A stretch of 64,000 bases of DNA from Caulobacter sp. NIBR2454 (GTDB lineage: Bacteria > Pseudomonadota > Alphaproteobacteria > Caulobacterales > Caulobacteraceae). The notes beneath the pieces are model-generated. The model did no database searches. It was not told where the DNA came from and saw nothing but the letters and a program-made list of their open reading frames with translations. Where the stretch lies: positions 992,001 through 1,056,000 of the forward strand of contig NZ_CP114871.1 in assembly GCF_027474405.1 (NCBI RefSeq). Direction: 5' to 3'. Positions 18,044 to 61,543 of the stretch are shown here, in pieces. Position numbers and translations under genes: made by a program. Within the stretch, counting starts at the first letter, position 1, and each line of letters starts with the position of its first letter.

Positions 18044-18631
18044 ATGAGTTCGCTCGACGCCGTTCTCGCTGATATCGCCGCCTGCCGCGCCTGCGCTGGC
18101 GAGCTCGCGCATGAGCCTCGGCCCGTGGTTCGCGTTTCGCCTCAGACCCGCATCCTGATCTGCGGCCAGGCGCCCGGACGACTGGTGCATGAGACGGGCC
18201 TGCCGTTCAACGACCCGTCCGGAAACCGCCTGCGTGGCTGGATGGGTGTCGACCGCGAGACGTTCTACGCGAACCCCGCGATCGGGGTGGCGGCCATGGC
18301 CTTCTGCTTTCCAGGCACAAATCCCAAGGGCGGTGACTATCCGCCTCCGACCCGCTGCGCCAAGCTGTGGCGCACAAAGCTGCTCGACAGCCTGCCCAAG
18401 ATGGAGCTGACCCTTCTGGTTGGTTGGCATGCTCAGGCCTGGGCGTTGGGGCCTCGTTCCATGGAGAACATGACCCAGACCGTGCGGGCCTGGGAACGAT
18501 ACCTGCCGCAGTTCCTGCCCATGCCGCATCCGTCCTGGCGCAACACGTCGTGGCTGAAGAAGAACCCCTGGTTCGACGCCGAGGTGGTTCCCTATCTGCA
18601 AGATCGTGTGGCTAAACTGCTCAAGGCATGA
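18044..18631 (+). CDS. uracil-DNA glycosylase-like family protein
   Basis: A 195-aa member of the UDG fold family. Visible elements are a CxxC near the N-terminus (CRACAG), ILICGQAPGRLVHETGLPFND (the GQxPG motif A position) and FLPMPHPSWRNTSWLKKNPW (the HPS motif B position). It lacks the catalytic Asp/Asn arrangement of family 1 UDG, and activity on uracil is not certain; many members of this group are uncharacterised. Start codon ATG 18044; stop overlaps the next ATG. Confidence 0.78.
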   Translation: MSSLDAVLADIAACRACAGELAHEPRPVVRVSPQTRILICGQAPGRLVHETGLPFNDPSGNRLRGWMGVDRETFYANPAIGVAAMAFCFPGTNPKGGDYPPPTRCAKLWRTKLLDSLPKMELTLLVGWHAQAWALGPRSMENMTQTVRAWERYLPQFLPMPHPSWRNTSWLKKNPWFDAEVVPYLQDRVAKLLKA

Positions 18632-23442: not shown

Positions 23443-23457
23443 GAACAAAAAGCGAAC
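23443..23457. promoter_or_regulatory. LexA (SOS) box upstream of the radical SAM-UdgX operon
   Basis: GAAC-AAAAAGC-GAAC is an exact match to the alphaproteobacterial LexA operator (GTTC-N7-GTTC on the other strand). It ends 14 bases before the ATG of the radical SAM gene, a position where LexA would block transcription. The same spaced motif appears upstream of recA in this window. Confidence 0.85.
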
Positions 23458-23471
23458 ATTATGGTGGACTC

Positions 23472-24704
23472 ATGGCCGTTCTTGATCTGAAGTCCAAGCT
23501 CGCAATCTTGTCCGATGCGGCCAAGTACGACGCGTCCTGCGCTTCTTCAGGCGGCCAGAAACGCAATTCCCTGGGCGGCAAGGGCGTCGGCTCGACCGAG
23601 GGCATGGGCATCTGCCACGCCTATGCGCCGGACGGGCGGTGCATAAGCCTACTGAAAATCCTTCTGACCAACTTCTGCATCTACGACTGCGCCTACTGCA
23701 TCAACCGTTCGTCCTCGAACGTGAAGCGGGCGCGGTTCACGGTGGAGGAGGTTGTCGACCTCACCCTGGGCTTCTACAAGCGCAACTATATCGAGGGGCT
23801 TTTCCTCTCATCCGGCATCATCCGCAGCGGCGACTACACCATGGAGGAGATGGTGCGGGTGGCCCGGACGCTGCGCGAGGTCCACGATTTCCGCGGCTAC
23901 ATCCACCTCAAGCTGATCCCGGAGGCCTCGGCGGCCCTAGTGCTGGAGGCGGGGCTCTATGCCGATCGCGTCTCGATCAACATCGAGCTACCCAAGGACG
24001 AGAGCCTGACCGCCCTCGCGCCGGAAAAGGATGTCGGGGTCATCAAGAAGGCCATGGGCGGCGTGCGCCTGGCCATCGAGGAGCGCGCGCCGCGGAAGAA
24101 GGACCGCGTCCAGCCCAAGAAGTATGTCACCGGCCAGTCGACCCAGCTGATCGTTGGCGCCGATGCCGCCACCGACGGCGACATCCTGGCGCGGAGCGAG
24201 AACCTCTACGGTTCCTACAGCCTCAAGCGGGTCTACTACTCGGCATTCAGTCCGATCCCCGACAGCTCCAGCCGCCTGCCGCCGCAAAAGCCGCCGCTGA
24301 TGCGCGAGCACCGTCTGTATCAGGCCGACTGGCTGATGCGGTTCTATGGCTTTGAGCGGGGCGAGATTGTCGGCGTGGGCCAGAACCTGGATCTGGCCGT
24401 CGATCCCAAGCTGGCCTGGGCCTTGGCCAATCGCGACCGTTTCCCCGTGGATGTGAACAAGGCCGATCGGGAGATGCTGCTGCGGATCCCGGGCCTGGGC
24501 GTCAAATCTGTGGATGGGCTTGTCGCCTTGCGTCGCCAGAAGCGGGTTCGGCTAGAAGATCTGAAAAAGCTGTGCGGCTCGGAGAAGAAGTTGCGCCCCT
24601 TCGTCATCGCCGATGACTGGACCCCCGGCCCATTGAGCGACGCCGACGACCTGACCGCGCACCTGCCGCGCGAAACGCCGCCGCAGCAGTTGAGTCTCTT
24701 TTAA
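23472..24704 (+). CDS. putative DNA modification/repair radical SAM protein (UdgX-linked)
   Basis: Radical S-adenosylmethionine enzyme of 410 aa. The Fe-S cysteines are C69-x3-C73-x2-C76 in NFCIYDCAYCINRSSSN. The SAM-domain barrel continues through LFLSSGIIRSGDYTMEEM and GYIHLKLIPEAS. The C-terminal part has a helix-hairpin-helix DNA-binding motif (DVNKADREMLLRIPGLGVKS). This matches the uncharacterised family routinely found next to UDG-fold genes, presumed to act in DNA modification or repair. Stop and next start overlap (TAATG), and a LexA box precedes it, so it is predicted to be DNA-damage inducible. Its reaction is not known. Confidence 0.9.
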   Translation: MAVLDLKSKLAILSDAAKYDASCASSGGQKRNSLGGKGVGSTEGMGICHAYAPDGRCISLLKILLTNFCIYDCAYCINRSSSNVKRARFTVEEVVDLTLGFYKRNYIEGLFLSSGIIRSGDYTMEEMVRVARTLREVHDFRGYIHLKLIPEASAALVLEAGLYADRVSINIELPKDESLTALAPEKDVGVIKKAMGGVRLAIEERAPRKKDRVQPKKYVTGQSTQLIVGADAATDGDILARSENLYGSYSLKRVYYSAFSPIPDSSSRLPPQKPPLMREHRLYQADWLMRFYGFERGEIVGVGQNLDLAVDPKLAWALANRDRFPVDVNKADREMLLRIPGLGVKSVDGLVALRRQKRVRLEDLKKLCGSEKKLRPFVIADDWTPGPLSDADDLTAHLPRETPPQQLSLF

Positions 24705-26131
24705 TGCACGTCGCACGACTGGCGGGTGAGATCGACTTCGATAGCTGGCGCCGAGAGGCGCGCACCCTGCGGGCCCAGGGCGTACCCCCCGAACAGGTCA
24801 GCTGGACCGTCGGCGGGGAGGGGGACCTGTTCGCGGACGAGCCAGCCGTCGCGGTAGTCGAACCGGTCTTCACCGTCTCGCGCGAGTTCGTGGAATTGGC
24901 GCAGCAGGTGATCCTGCATCGTTCGCCTGACCGGTTGCCGCTGCTCTACCGGTTGCTGTGGCGGCTGCGGGACGAGCCGAACCTGCTGGAGCTGATCACC
25001 GATCCCGAAGTGCTACAGGCGCGCCACTTCGCCCAATCGGTCAGCCGCGCAAAGCACAAGATGAAGGCCTTCGTCCGTTTTCGCCTGCTGGAGGATGTCG
25101 AGCCCGAAAGCTACGCGGCCTGGTTCGAGCCGCCGCATCGTGTGACCGAGGCGATGGCGCCGTTCTTCGCTCGGCGCTTCGCCGGGATGAATTGGTCGAT
25201 TCTAACGCCCGACGCCTGCGCCCACTGGGACGGCGTGAGGTTGAGCTTCACGCCCGGAGCGGACGCCTCCCAGGCTCCGTCGGAAGATGCGTTGGAAGGC
25301 GCGTGGTCCACCTACTTCGCTTCGATCTTCAATCCGGCCCGGCTGAACACTTCGGCCATGCAGCAGCACATGCCAAAGCGCTACTGGCGCAACCTTCCCG
25401 AGGCGCGGCTCATTCCCGACCTGATCGCCACCGCCCAGGAGAGGACCGCGGCCATGGTCCAGAGCGCCCCGACCACGCCCTCCAGACGCACCATGAAGGC
25501 GGCTCTGCGCATGGCTCGCGACAGGCCGGCCGAGGGTGGGGCGCCCACCACGCTGGAGGAAGTCGCCGCTGGCGTCGATGTCTGCCGCCGCTGCGACTTG
25601 TGGCGCGACGCCACGCAAGGCGTGGCCGGCGAGGGGCCGGGACGGGCCAAGCTGATGTTCGTGGGCGAGCAGCCGGGGGACCAGGAGGATTTGGCCGGCC
25701 ATCCCTTCGTCGGCCCCGCAGGCAAGGTGCTCGATCGCGCCCTGGCAGAGGCCGGCGTCCCGCGTGCGGAGACCTACGTCACCAACGCCGTGAAGCACTT
25801 CAAGCACGAGCCGCGCGGCAAGCGGCGGCTGCATAAGACTCCCGACCGCGGCGAGGTTCAGGCCTGCCGCTGGTGGCTGGACGCCGAGCGCCGCATCGTC
25901 CGCCCACGCGTGATCGTCGCCTTGGGCGCCACGGCGGCTCTATCGGTGTTTGGAAAGCCCACGGCCATCGCCGCCAATCGCGGCCAAGCGCTGCAGCTAC
26001 CGGATCAGGCCCAGGCGGTGGTCACCTACCACCCGTCGTTCCTGCTGCGCGTGCCGGATGAGGCGGCGAAGGCGAAAGCCTATGCCGAGTTCGTGCAGGA
26101 TCTGAGGTTCGCCTGGAGCCTGGCGGCCTAG
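24704..26131 (+). CDS. udgX: UdgX family uracil-DNA binding protein with N-terminal DUF4130 domain
   Basis: A 475-aa two-domain protein. Residues 1 to about 245 form the DUF4130 domain (ending around MPKRYWRNLPEA). Residues about 285-475 are a UDG-superfamily domain: CRRCDLW (likely Fe-S ligands), motif A GEQPGDQEDLAGHPFVGPAG from residue 321, the R-loop GKRRLHKTP and motif B TYHPSFLLR. His377 in KRRLH is the position that, in the characterised mycobacterial UdgX, forms a covalent bond to uracil-DNA, so this protein is predicted to trap uracil sites irreversibly. It is coupled to the radical SAM gene; its TAG overlaps the convergent TetR gene's TAG. Confidence 0.9.
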   Translation: MHVARLAGEIDFDSWRREARTLRAQGVPPEQVSWTVGGEGDLFADEPAVAVVEPVFTVSREFVELAQQVILHRSPDRLPLLYRLLWRLRDEPNLLELITDPEVLQARHFAQSVSRAKHKMKAFVRFRLLEDVEPESYAAWFEPPHRVTEAMAPFFARRFAGMNWSILTPDACAHWDGVRLSFTPGADASQAPSEDALEGAWSTYFASIFNPARLNTSAMQQHMPKRYWRNLPEARLIPDLIATAQERTAAMVQSAPTTPSRRTMKAALRMARDRPAEGGAPTTLEEVAAGVDVCRRCDLWRDATQGVAGEGPGRAKLMFVGEQPGDQEDLAGHPFVGPAGKVLDRALAEAGVPRAETYVTNAVKHFKHEPRGKRRLHKTPDRGEVQACRWWLDAERRIVRPRVIVALGATAALSVFGKPTAIAANRGQALQLPDQAQAVVTYHPSFLLRVPDEAAKAKAYAEFVQDLRFAWSLAA

Positions 26132-60353: not shown

Positions 60354-60368
60354 GAACATCTTGCGAAC
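60354..60368. promoter_or_regulatory. LexA (SOS) box upstream of recA
   Basis: GAAC-ATCTTGC-GAAC matches the alphaproteobacterial LexA operator and lies about 100 bases upstream of the recA ATG. A third GAAC follows at 60372-60375. It identifies recA as the SOS target and lies upstream of the EAL gene start too. Confidence 0.9.
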
Positions 60369-60469: not shown

Positions 60470-61543
60470 ATGAACCAAGCGGCGTTGAGGCTCGTGGCAC
60501 GCGAAGAAGGCGATAAACAAAAGGCTCTTGAGGCCGCCCTGGCACAGATTGACCGGGCGTTCGGCAAGGGCTCGGTTATGAAACTGGGCGACAAGGGCAA
60601 GGTCGAGATGGAGTCGGTTTCGACCGGCTCGCTTGGCCTGGACATCGCCCTGGGGATCGGCGGTCTGCCCAAGGGGCGGATCATCGAGATCTACGGTCCG
60701 GAAAGCTCGGGCAAGACGACGCTCGCCCTGCACGTGGTGGCCGAGGTTCAGAAGGCCGGCGGCACCGCCGCCTTCGTGGACGCCGAGCATGCGCTCGACC
60801 CGTCCTATGCTCACAAGCTGAAGGTGAACCTGGACGAGCTGCTGGTGTCGCAGCCCGACACCGGCGAGCAGGCGCTTGAGATCACCGACACCCTGGTGCG
60901 CTCCGGCGCCGTGGACGTCATCGTCATCGACTCGGTGGCGGCCCTGACGCCGCGCGCCGAAATCGAAGGCGAGATGGGCGACAGCCTGCCGGGCCTCCAG
61001 GCCCGTCTGATGAGCCAGGCGCTGCGCAAGCTGACCGCCTCGATCAACAAGGCCAAGACCCTGGTGATCTTCATCAACCAAATCCGCCACAAGATCGGCG
61101 TCATGTACGGCTCGCCCGAGACGACCACGGGCGGCAACGCCCTGAAGTTCTATGCCTCGGTCCGCCTGGACATCCGACGCACCGGCTCGGTCAAGGTGCG
61201 CGACGAGATCATCGGCAACAATGTCCGGGTCAAGGTGGTCAAGAACAAGGTCGCCCCGCCGTTCCGCGAGGTCGAGTTCGACATCATGTACGGGGAGGGG
61301 ATCTCCAAACTGGGTGAGATCATCGATCTGGGCGTCAAGGCCGGGATCGTCGAGAAGTCCGGCTCCTGGTTCTCGTACAACAGTCAGCGGATCGGGCAGG
61401 GGCGCGACAATGTGCGCGAGTTCCTGAAGCAGAACCCGGACCTCGCAGACAGCATCGAAAAGGCCGTCCGCGCGTCTTCCAGCAAGATTGAGGAAGAATT
61501 GCTGGTTGGCGGACCCGACGCTCAGGAAGACACCGAAGGCTAA
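60470..61543 (+). CDS. recA: recombinase RecA
   Basis: DNA recombinase and LexA coprotease, 357 aa. Walker A is GPESSGKT at residues 76-83; other signatures are [34 protein letters not shown] (Walker B), and loop L1/L2 text [20 protein letters not shown] and [26 protein letters not shown] precedes the ATG. The C-terminal tail is acidic ([21 protein letters not shown]), as usual. A LexA box lies upstream. Confidence 0.98.

What the first reader, a model, noticed from the sequence alone, without database searches (positions are those of the whole stretch)
23443..26131. SOS-box-controlled radical SAM/UdgX operon: a candidate uracil-DNA capture and processing system
Seen: exact GAAC-N7-GAAC 14 bases before a radical SAM gene with C-x3-C-x2-C and a helix-hairpin-helix tail, overlapping (TAATG) a gene that fuses DUF4130 to a UDG domain carrying KRRLH. 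Known: in mycobacterial UdgX the His of KRRIH forms a covalent adduct with uracil sites; the radical SAM partner and DUF4130 are uncharacterised. Inference: damage induces a pair that captures uracil (or a modified base produced by the radical SAM enzyme) and perhaps resolves the adduct. The role of DUF4130 and the radical chemistry is open.
Basis: partly seen in the sequence, partly recalled or inferred. Interest (0 to 1): 0.75.

Follow-up and report, generated by a model that had tools for sequence, protein, structure and literature searches.

The report
SOS-type radical-SAM/DUF4130 DNA-repair operon
A Caulobacter two-gene operon, very probably switched on by DNA damage, pairs a radical enzyme with a partner protein of unknown function that here carries a uracil-trapping domain; the association and its damage control are already in print, but what the pair does to DNA is unknown, and comparison across bacteria suggests that the uracil trap is an optional extra.

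Summary
In detail: GAAC-N7-GAAC lies 14 nt before a radical SAM gene (TIGR03916) that overlaps (TAATG) a DUF4130 (TIGR03915) plus UdgX (TIGR03914) fusion; His377 aligns with the UdgX cross-linking His. The box is no richer than chance in the window (2 found, 1.58 expected), but its position is conserved: 120 of 126 loci (own locus included, nearly all alphaproteobacterial). The window's other exact box precedes recA. In 29 loci of the phylum outside the class the alpha box is absent; 19 have CTGT-N8-ACAG, 5 CTG-N10-CAG, 3 GTCTCA-N5-TGAGAC. I infer selected damage control. The association and its SOS control are in print. Added here: the core is radical SAM + DUF4130 (17 genomes with both, 18 with each, of 289). 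UdgX is optional (10 of 17), and standalone UdgX genes mostly lack the box (1 of 14 has it). That argues against the idea that the radical enzyme exists to resolve UdgX adducts. Best guess: light-independent radical processing of damaged pyrimidines, with UdgX capturing uracil left where damaged cytosine deaminated. SOS control about 0.95; core pair about 0.85; that chemistry about 0.25.

The parts
23443..23457 (+). LexA-type operator GAAC-N7-GAAC
   Evidence: exact match; conserved position in 120 of 126 loci, own included
23472..24704 (+). radical SAM gene, 410 aa, TIGR03916 (rSAM_link_UDG)
   Evidence: 540.5 bits, cut-off 343.5; AF2 mean pLDDT 86.4, residues 27-291 radical SAM fold
23538..23642 (+). 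stretch with the codons of three extra cysteines C23, C48, C57 ahead of the SAM cluster motif
   Evidence: invariant in the 54 rows of A4 and the 8 of A1, one Bacillota and one Bacteroidota member included; cluster role inferred
23676..23699 (+). C-x3-C-x2-C (C69, C73, C76), SAM [4Fe-4S] site
   Evidence: C69, C73, C76 invariant in A4
24447..24569 (+). helix-hairpin-helix tail (residues 326-366)
   Evidence: PF12836 E 0.0037, below Pfam cut-off; stronger in relatives; profile match to a ComEA-related chain
24704..26131 (+). DUF4130-UdgX fusion gene, 475 aa, overlapping the radical SAM stop codon (TAATG)
   Evidence: TIGR03915 + TIGR03914; AF2 mean pLDDT 91.7, pTM 0.56
24704..25408 (+). DUF4130 part (residues 1-235)
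   Evidence: TIGR03915 residues 11-234, PF13566 residues 76-233
25550..26113 (+). UdgX part (residues 283-470)
25820..25834 (+). KRRLH R-loop; His377 = predicted covalent nucleophile
   Evidence: aligns with KRRIH of UdgX; His in 97 of 97 UDG domains beside the pair, own included

Best explanation
A LexA-controlled DNA-repair operon. Layer 1 (about 0.95; strong sequence evidence, no experiment): LexA sits on the operator over the promoter and releases it after damage. Layer 2 (about 0.85; shown by co-occurrence; lowered from 0.9 because two loci, L087 and L167, lack DUF4130 next to the radical SAM gene): the working core is the radical SAM protein plus DUF4130, made together by adjoining genes; UdgX is an accessory domain on DUF4130. 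Layer 3 (about 0.25; inferred): the HhH tail holds the radical SAM enzyme on DNA, where a 5'-deoxyadenosyl radical reverses or processes a damaged pyrimidine with a saturated or cross-linked C5-C6 bond; DUF4130 recognises the site or hands it on. Cytosine with a saturated C5-C6 bond deaminates quickly (established chemistry, recalled), so reversal would often leave uracil; the fused UdgX captures it through His377 and holds the abasic site for later repair.
Against: No experiment. Nothing here identifies the substrate. The protein matches no spore-photoproduct-lyase model. Presence does not track absence of photolyase: 9 of 54 genomes with the operon and 11 of 65 without it lack PF03441 at E <= 0.001. 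L087 has 1461 bases and L167 688 bases after the radical SAM gene with no DUF4130. DUF4130 matches only itself in Pfam above noise, and its fold was not tested on its own. The genome-wide count of the box is near chance. Single Bacteroidota, Acinetobacter, Acetoanaerobium and Verrucomicrobiia-labelled loci show none of the boxes tested.
Confidence: 0.3

Rival explanations
1. The radical SAM enzyme with DUF4130 installs or oxidises a base modification (on thymine for example) and the UDG domain removes the modified base.
For: [quoted passage not shown] NCBIfam name 'DNA modification/repair'.
Against: SOS control fits repair better than constant modification; UdgX, where studied, acts on uracil (PMC10359453, passages); the UDG is missing from 45 of 152 operons in the tree.
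Confidence: 0.2
2. A base-excision system for bases put in wrongly during SOS DNA synthesis.
For: PMC8565304 calls COG1573-COG4277 a putative UDG-based base-excision system of the SOS response and suggests that it deals with ribonucleotide misincorporation by error-prone polymerases (passages).
Against: Does not explain why operons without a fused UDG also have the box (21 of 24), nor why radical chemistry is needed.
Confidence: 0.15
3. One reading: UdgX captures uracil sites and the radical SAM enzyme resolves the covalent adduct.
For: Fusion and operon; His377 conserved.
Against: The deep branches of the tree as I rooted it (L107, L110, L108, L109, L224, L003, L141) have radical SAM + DUF4130 without UDG; 12 of 24 UdgX genomes in the class sample have no radical SAM gene over the cut-off.
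Confidence: 0.07
4. A defence or mobile-element function, with damage induction as the trigger.
For: Patchy: 54 of 119 family genomes, 18 of 289 class genomes over cut-off, 158 plasmid records, 10 records of the phage collection, 7 of them covering at least 80% of the query.
Against: No PADLOC match for either protein; the IMG/VR scan confirmed no relative (72 pattern matches, none confirmed); found on long chromosomal contigs with a damage-type operator.
Confidence: 0.08

Closest known systems
TIGR03916 / TIGR03915 / TIGR03914 linked families (COG4277-COG1573 operon)
   Same: All three models over cut-off, genes adjoining; SOS control of such an operon inferred in print for Bacteroidetes and, by citation there, reported for Verrucomicrobia and Alphaproteobacteria. 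That COG4277 and COG1573 are these families is my reading, not from a call.
   Different: Nothing found in the window itself; it is an ordinary member.
UdgX (M. smegmatis, 6AJO and others)
   Different: C-terminal domain of a DUF4130 protein in an operon with an SOS box; standalone UdgX genes had the box in 1 of 14.
Spore photoproduct lyase SplB (COG1533)
   Same: Radical SAM protein tied to DNA repair and SOS; PMC3765255 calls the DUF4130 partner SplB-like; PMC3323433 predicts SOS control of splB in alpha- and betaproteobacteria (passages).
   Different: No SPL model match; three extra invariant N-terminal cysteines and an HhH-like tail.
HydE / lipoyl synthase / biotin synthase fold group
   Different: These do not act on DNA (recalled); a shared fold shows no function.

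Membership tests
TIGR03916 radical SAM | score over curated cut-off | tested here: met
   540.5 against 343.5 bits
TIGR03916 radical SAM | C-x3-C-x2-C SAM cluster motif | tested here: met
   C69, C73, C76, invariant in A4
TIGR03915 / DUF4130 | score over cut-off and adjacency to the radical SAM gene | tested here: met
   208.3 against 112.25 bits; overlap TAATG
UdgX (TIGR03914) | motif A GEQPG, R-loop with Arg and His, motif B | tested here: met
   window has GEQPG, KRRLH, HPSFLLR; signature taken from PMC10359453 passages
UdgX (TIGR03914) | Fe-S ligands | tested here: inconclusive
   three Cys align with UdgX, each kept in 89 of 97; a fourth ligand was not traced
UdgX (TIGR03914) | covalent bond to the abasic site | not testable with these tools
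   needs purified protein
Spore photoproduct lyase | match to SPL family models | tested here: not met
   TIGR03916 is the only NCBIfam match at E <= 0.001
Alphaproteobacterial LexA regulon | GAAC-N7-GAAC upstream, conserved in position | tested here: met
   120 of 126 loci
Alphaproteobacterial LexA regulon | LexA binding and damage induction | not testable with these tools
   reported in print for Alphaproteobacteria, seen by citation only; the cited paper is not held
Known anti-phage systems | PADLOC model match | tested here: not met
   0 families for both proteins at E <= 0.001

The most novel reading that the evidence does not exclude
An unrecognised light-independent direct-reversal pathway: a second kind of radical SAM DNA-repair enzyme besides spore photoproduct lyase, with an N-terminal auxiliary cluster on C23, C48 and C57, a near-obligate DUF4130 partner, and, in many bacteria, a fused suicide uracil trap that catches the uracil left when a deaminated damaged cytosine is restored.
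Probability: 0.22. Interest if true: 0.82.

Novelty: new member of a known kind. Interest (0 to 1): 0.5.

Why it matters
The operon is widespread and stands under damage-type operators of different kinds in different lineages (two well supported here, two more likely), yet its lesion is unknown. Evidence that UdgX is an accessory, not the core, changes which experiment to do first: look for a radical reaction on damaged DNA that needs radical SAM + DUF4130 alone. It also gives UdgX, a suicide enzyme with no settled cellular role that I know of, a concrete setting in which to look for one.

Tried and rejected
Box enrichment in the window or genome: none over chance, so motif presence alone was dropped as evidence. 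Photolyase complementarity: none. Spore photoproduct lyase complementarity: uninformative, 5 of 119 genomes with matches, none over cut-off. SPL does not appear among the rows shown, which excludes nothing. Viral contigs: no relative confirmed. PHROGs: only weak matches. DUF4130 in the PDB by sequence: only superoxide dismutase rows at E 0.58 and above, rejected. Gemmatirosa locus L111 (38% identity) lacks the extra cysteines by eye and had no DUF4130 hit in the stretch; left out of the box and tree counts. PMC10776899 was searched for operon, fusion, LexA, SOS, domain: no passage.

Rows and counts. One search read 22 of 46 loci (orientation error; repeated); one search read 73 of 80 (pattern too strict; repeated). 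One search picked wrong starts for some long frames; one search corrected them, and 19 of 29 is 16 plus L229, L230 and L248, where the box runs into the start codon. Six of 126 lack the exact box: L003, L080, L141, L160, L176, L192; in L080, L160 and L176 (by eye) one base differs. Five of 132 radical SAM loci had no DUF4130 hit: L018 and L166 are cut by contig ends, L111 is the distant relative, L087 and L167 have other genes there. The tree left out L007, L018, L087, L137, L149, L166, L167, L111 and L242; L137 has DUF4130 and the box and could have been kept. One search read 14 of 15 standalone UdgX loci; 16 such places were over cut-off, one without a locus; its window is 400 nt before the GEQPG codon, looser than the 150 nt used for the operon. 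The GTCTCA palindrome was noticed by eye in the loci in which it is then counted. In one search one site per genome was read (25 loci).

Full report
What is there. The window comes from a genome near Caulobacter by protein hits (one search lists Caulobacter sp. 73W at 94% and C. segnis at 93% identity for the radical SAM protein). At 23443-23457 stands GAACAAAAAGCGAAC, 14 nt before the ATG of a 410-residue radical SAM protein (23472-24704), whose stop codon overlaps the ATG of a 475-residue DUF4130-UDG fusion (24704-26131). NCBIfam gives TIGR03916 for the first, TIGR03915 and TIGR03914 for the second, all over cut-off. The details of the observation are right, His377 included; only the HhH tail is weak by Pfam in this one protein.

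Is it more than chance? The motif alone is not: 2 exact boxes in the window against 1.58 expected, 92 in the genome against 81 for the reversed control. Its place is. Within 150 nt upstream of the radical SAM start an exact GAAC-N7-GAAC (or its complement) occurs in 44 of 46 loci from unnamed class and family genomes, the window's own included, and in 76 of 80 named GTDB loci; for the first set, 18 of 1213 other 150-bp windows have it, and 0.175 of 46 after shuffling. The 80 named loci are the best of 592 confirmed matches, themselves a capped list, hence mostly alphaproteobacterial; the two sets overlap. The window's only other exact box, at 60354, lies 101 nt before recA. In the same genome I read 12 further sites, most picked for A-rich spacers: four precede lexA, an imuA-like gene (below its curated cut-off), dnaE and an mmcB-like gene; behind the other eight I named no gene.

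Other lineages, other operators. In 29 loci from the same phylum outside the class (genomes unnamed; beta/gamma-type is my reading of the operators and of the tree), the alpha box is absent (0 of 29), and CTGT-N8-ACAG stands instead in 19 (16 upstream, against 0.06 after shuffling; 3 running into the start codon); conversely CTGT-N8-ACAG occurs in 0 of 126 of the alpha set. Five more have CTG-N10-CAG, a weak pattern (21 of 29 observed in all, 1.16 expected after shuffling); four of the five share one sequence, CTGTACAAAAAACCAG, L234 differs. Three have GTCTCA-N5-TGAGAC with one end base left free (0 after shuffling, but noticed by eye first). Two have none, L224 and L245; L224 groups with Acinetobacter L109 in the tree, a genus that lacks canonical LexA (recalled). 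A Bacillota locus has two GAAC-N4-GTTC, the only two in 7251 bp, beginning 57 and 28 nt before a small leading ORF. No tested box was seen for the single Bacteroidota, Acinetobacter, Acetoanaerobium and Verrucomicrobiia-labelled loci; I did not test the published Bacteroidota motifs. The names of the CTGT-N8-ACAG and GAAC-N4-GTTC boxes as LexA boxes are recalled; GTTC-N7-GTTC for Alphaproteobacteria is stated in PMC8565304 (passage).

Promoter shape. In 73 of 120 loci the box ends 0 to 4 nt before the start codon. The consensus GAACATATCATGAAC holds a -10-like ATATCAT, and a loose -35 pattern begins 16-21 nt before the box in 52 of 112 (no control run). I infer that LexA covers the -10 element and that the mRNA is often leaderless. 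In the window the spacing is 14 nt.

Core and accessory. In the class sample of 289 genomes, radical SAM over cut-off: 18; DUF4130 over cut-off: 18; both: 17. The exceptions are a radical SAM gene cut by a contig end (G045) and a DUF4130 gene beside a partial radical SAM match (G182). UdgX over cut-off: 24 genomes, of which 10 have it as the fusion in the operon, 2 have it elsewhere beside a pair without it, and 12 have no radical SAM gene over cut-off. Five of the seven genomes whose pair lacks UdgX have no UdgX over cut-off. Among 132 radical SAM loci DUF4130 follows in 127, with the gap at most 30 nt in 104 and over 100 nt in 12; of the five without, two are cut by contig ends, one is the distant L111, and two, L087 and L167, have other genes there. 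So the pairing is near-obligate, not absolute. In the alpha set 21 of 24 operons without fused UdgX and 92 of 95 with it have the box (L146, one of the 24, has a UDG in another frame), while standalone UdgX genes have it in 1 of 14. A quick tree of 152 radical SAM proteins (107 fused, 45 not) needs 11 changes of the label, at least 6 forced by starred branches; with my rooting on L107, L110 and L108 the deep branches lack UDG. The root rows do not form one side of a branch and several deep rows are long, so the deep order is unsure. I read this as an ancestral radical SAM-DUF4130 pair to which UdgX was added and from which it was lost several times. Within the family the operon is patchy, 54 of 119 genomes.

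What is in print. [quoted passage not shown] PMC8565304 (passages only): the two-gene operon COG1573-COG4277 is in the inferred SOS network of Bacteroidetes, and SOS control of a putative UDG-based repair system was reported in Verrucomicrobia and Alphaproteobacteria, citing papers on the Verrucomicrobia motif and on the Caulobacter crescentus SOS regulon; neither is held, so I have not seen which genes they name. PMC1839093 (passages) mentions four UDG-family genes in C. crescentus. Searches for UdgX with radical SAM, UdgX, DUF4130, radical SAM with UDG and LexA and COG4277 listed no paper that I recognised as an experimental study of the pair; the library lacks most subscription journals. 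The finding is therefore a member of a known, uncharacterised kind. In these searches I did not see the core/accessory split, the contrast with standalone UdgX, or the GTCTCA operator.

Mechanism. The radical SAM protein with its HhH-like tail is best placed as a DNA-acting enzyme; SOS control and the UDG fusion say lesion, not housekeeping modification. Because UdgX is optional, the radical step must be useful without it, which is the main argument against the adduct-resolution idea. A direct-reversal or lesion-processing step on saturated or cross-linked pyrimidines would explain why a uracil trap is a useful extra: such cytosines deaminate quickly (recalled chemistry), so reversal uncovers uracil. 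Nothing here identifies the lesion; the operon's presence is unrelated to photolyase presence (9 of 54 lack it with the operon, 11 of 65 without, at E <= 0.001). I put this chemistry at about 0.25.

Noticed in passing
L282-L290, L303-L327 (Xanthomonadaceae-type genomes; unnamed, placed by likeness to the Xanthomonas dyei locus L192): Palindrome GTCTCA-N5-TGAGAC occurs 3 times in each of G484, G678 and G758 (reversed control 0), before uvrA (3 of 3 genomes), a DEAH-box helicase (3 of 3), the radical SAM operon (2 of 3; one base differs in the third) and a small ORF (1) (families tested for L282 and L287 only). It occurs in 26 of 40 family genomes, reversed control 0. Of 25 sites read, 9 lie beside the helicase, 5 beside the radical SAM gene and 1 before recA; 10 were not identified. 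It looks like an SOS-type operator of this lineage; the regulator was not sought.
   Followed up: partly
L142:5318-5797; also L007, L143, L154, L168, L174: A hemerythrin-like gene lies between the radical SAM and DUF4130 genes in six loci (PF01814 tested for L142 only), four of them named Sphingomonadales, L007 and L143 not named; a possible oxygen- or iron-handling partner for the Fe-S enzyme.
   Followed up: partly
window 60354-60368 and 60470-61543: The only other exact GAAC-N7-GAAC of the window lies 101 nt before recA.
   Followed up: yes
window 18044-18631: A second small UDG-superfamily protein (PF03167, 85.5 bits), far below cut-off for the UdgX and type-4 UDG models, next to a DUF3253 gene.
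   Followed up: no
L087:1462-2766 (reverse strand) and L167: Radical SAM gene with the box but no DUF4130 next to it: in L087 rhomboid- and CBS-like frames follow within 1461 bases (names by eye), in L167 another frame within 688 bases.
   Followed up: partly
L111:2815-4266: Gemmatirosa radical SAM relative (38% identity) whose translation lacks the extra N-terminal cysteines, with no DUF4130 found in the stretch: perhaps a sister subfamily.
   Followed up: no
L146:4705-6674: DUF4130 and UDG lie in different overlapping frames in one alphaproteobacterial MAG; a split or a sequencing error.
   Followed up: no
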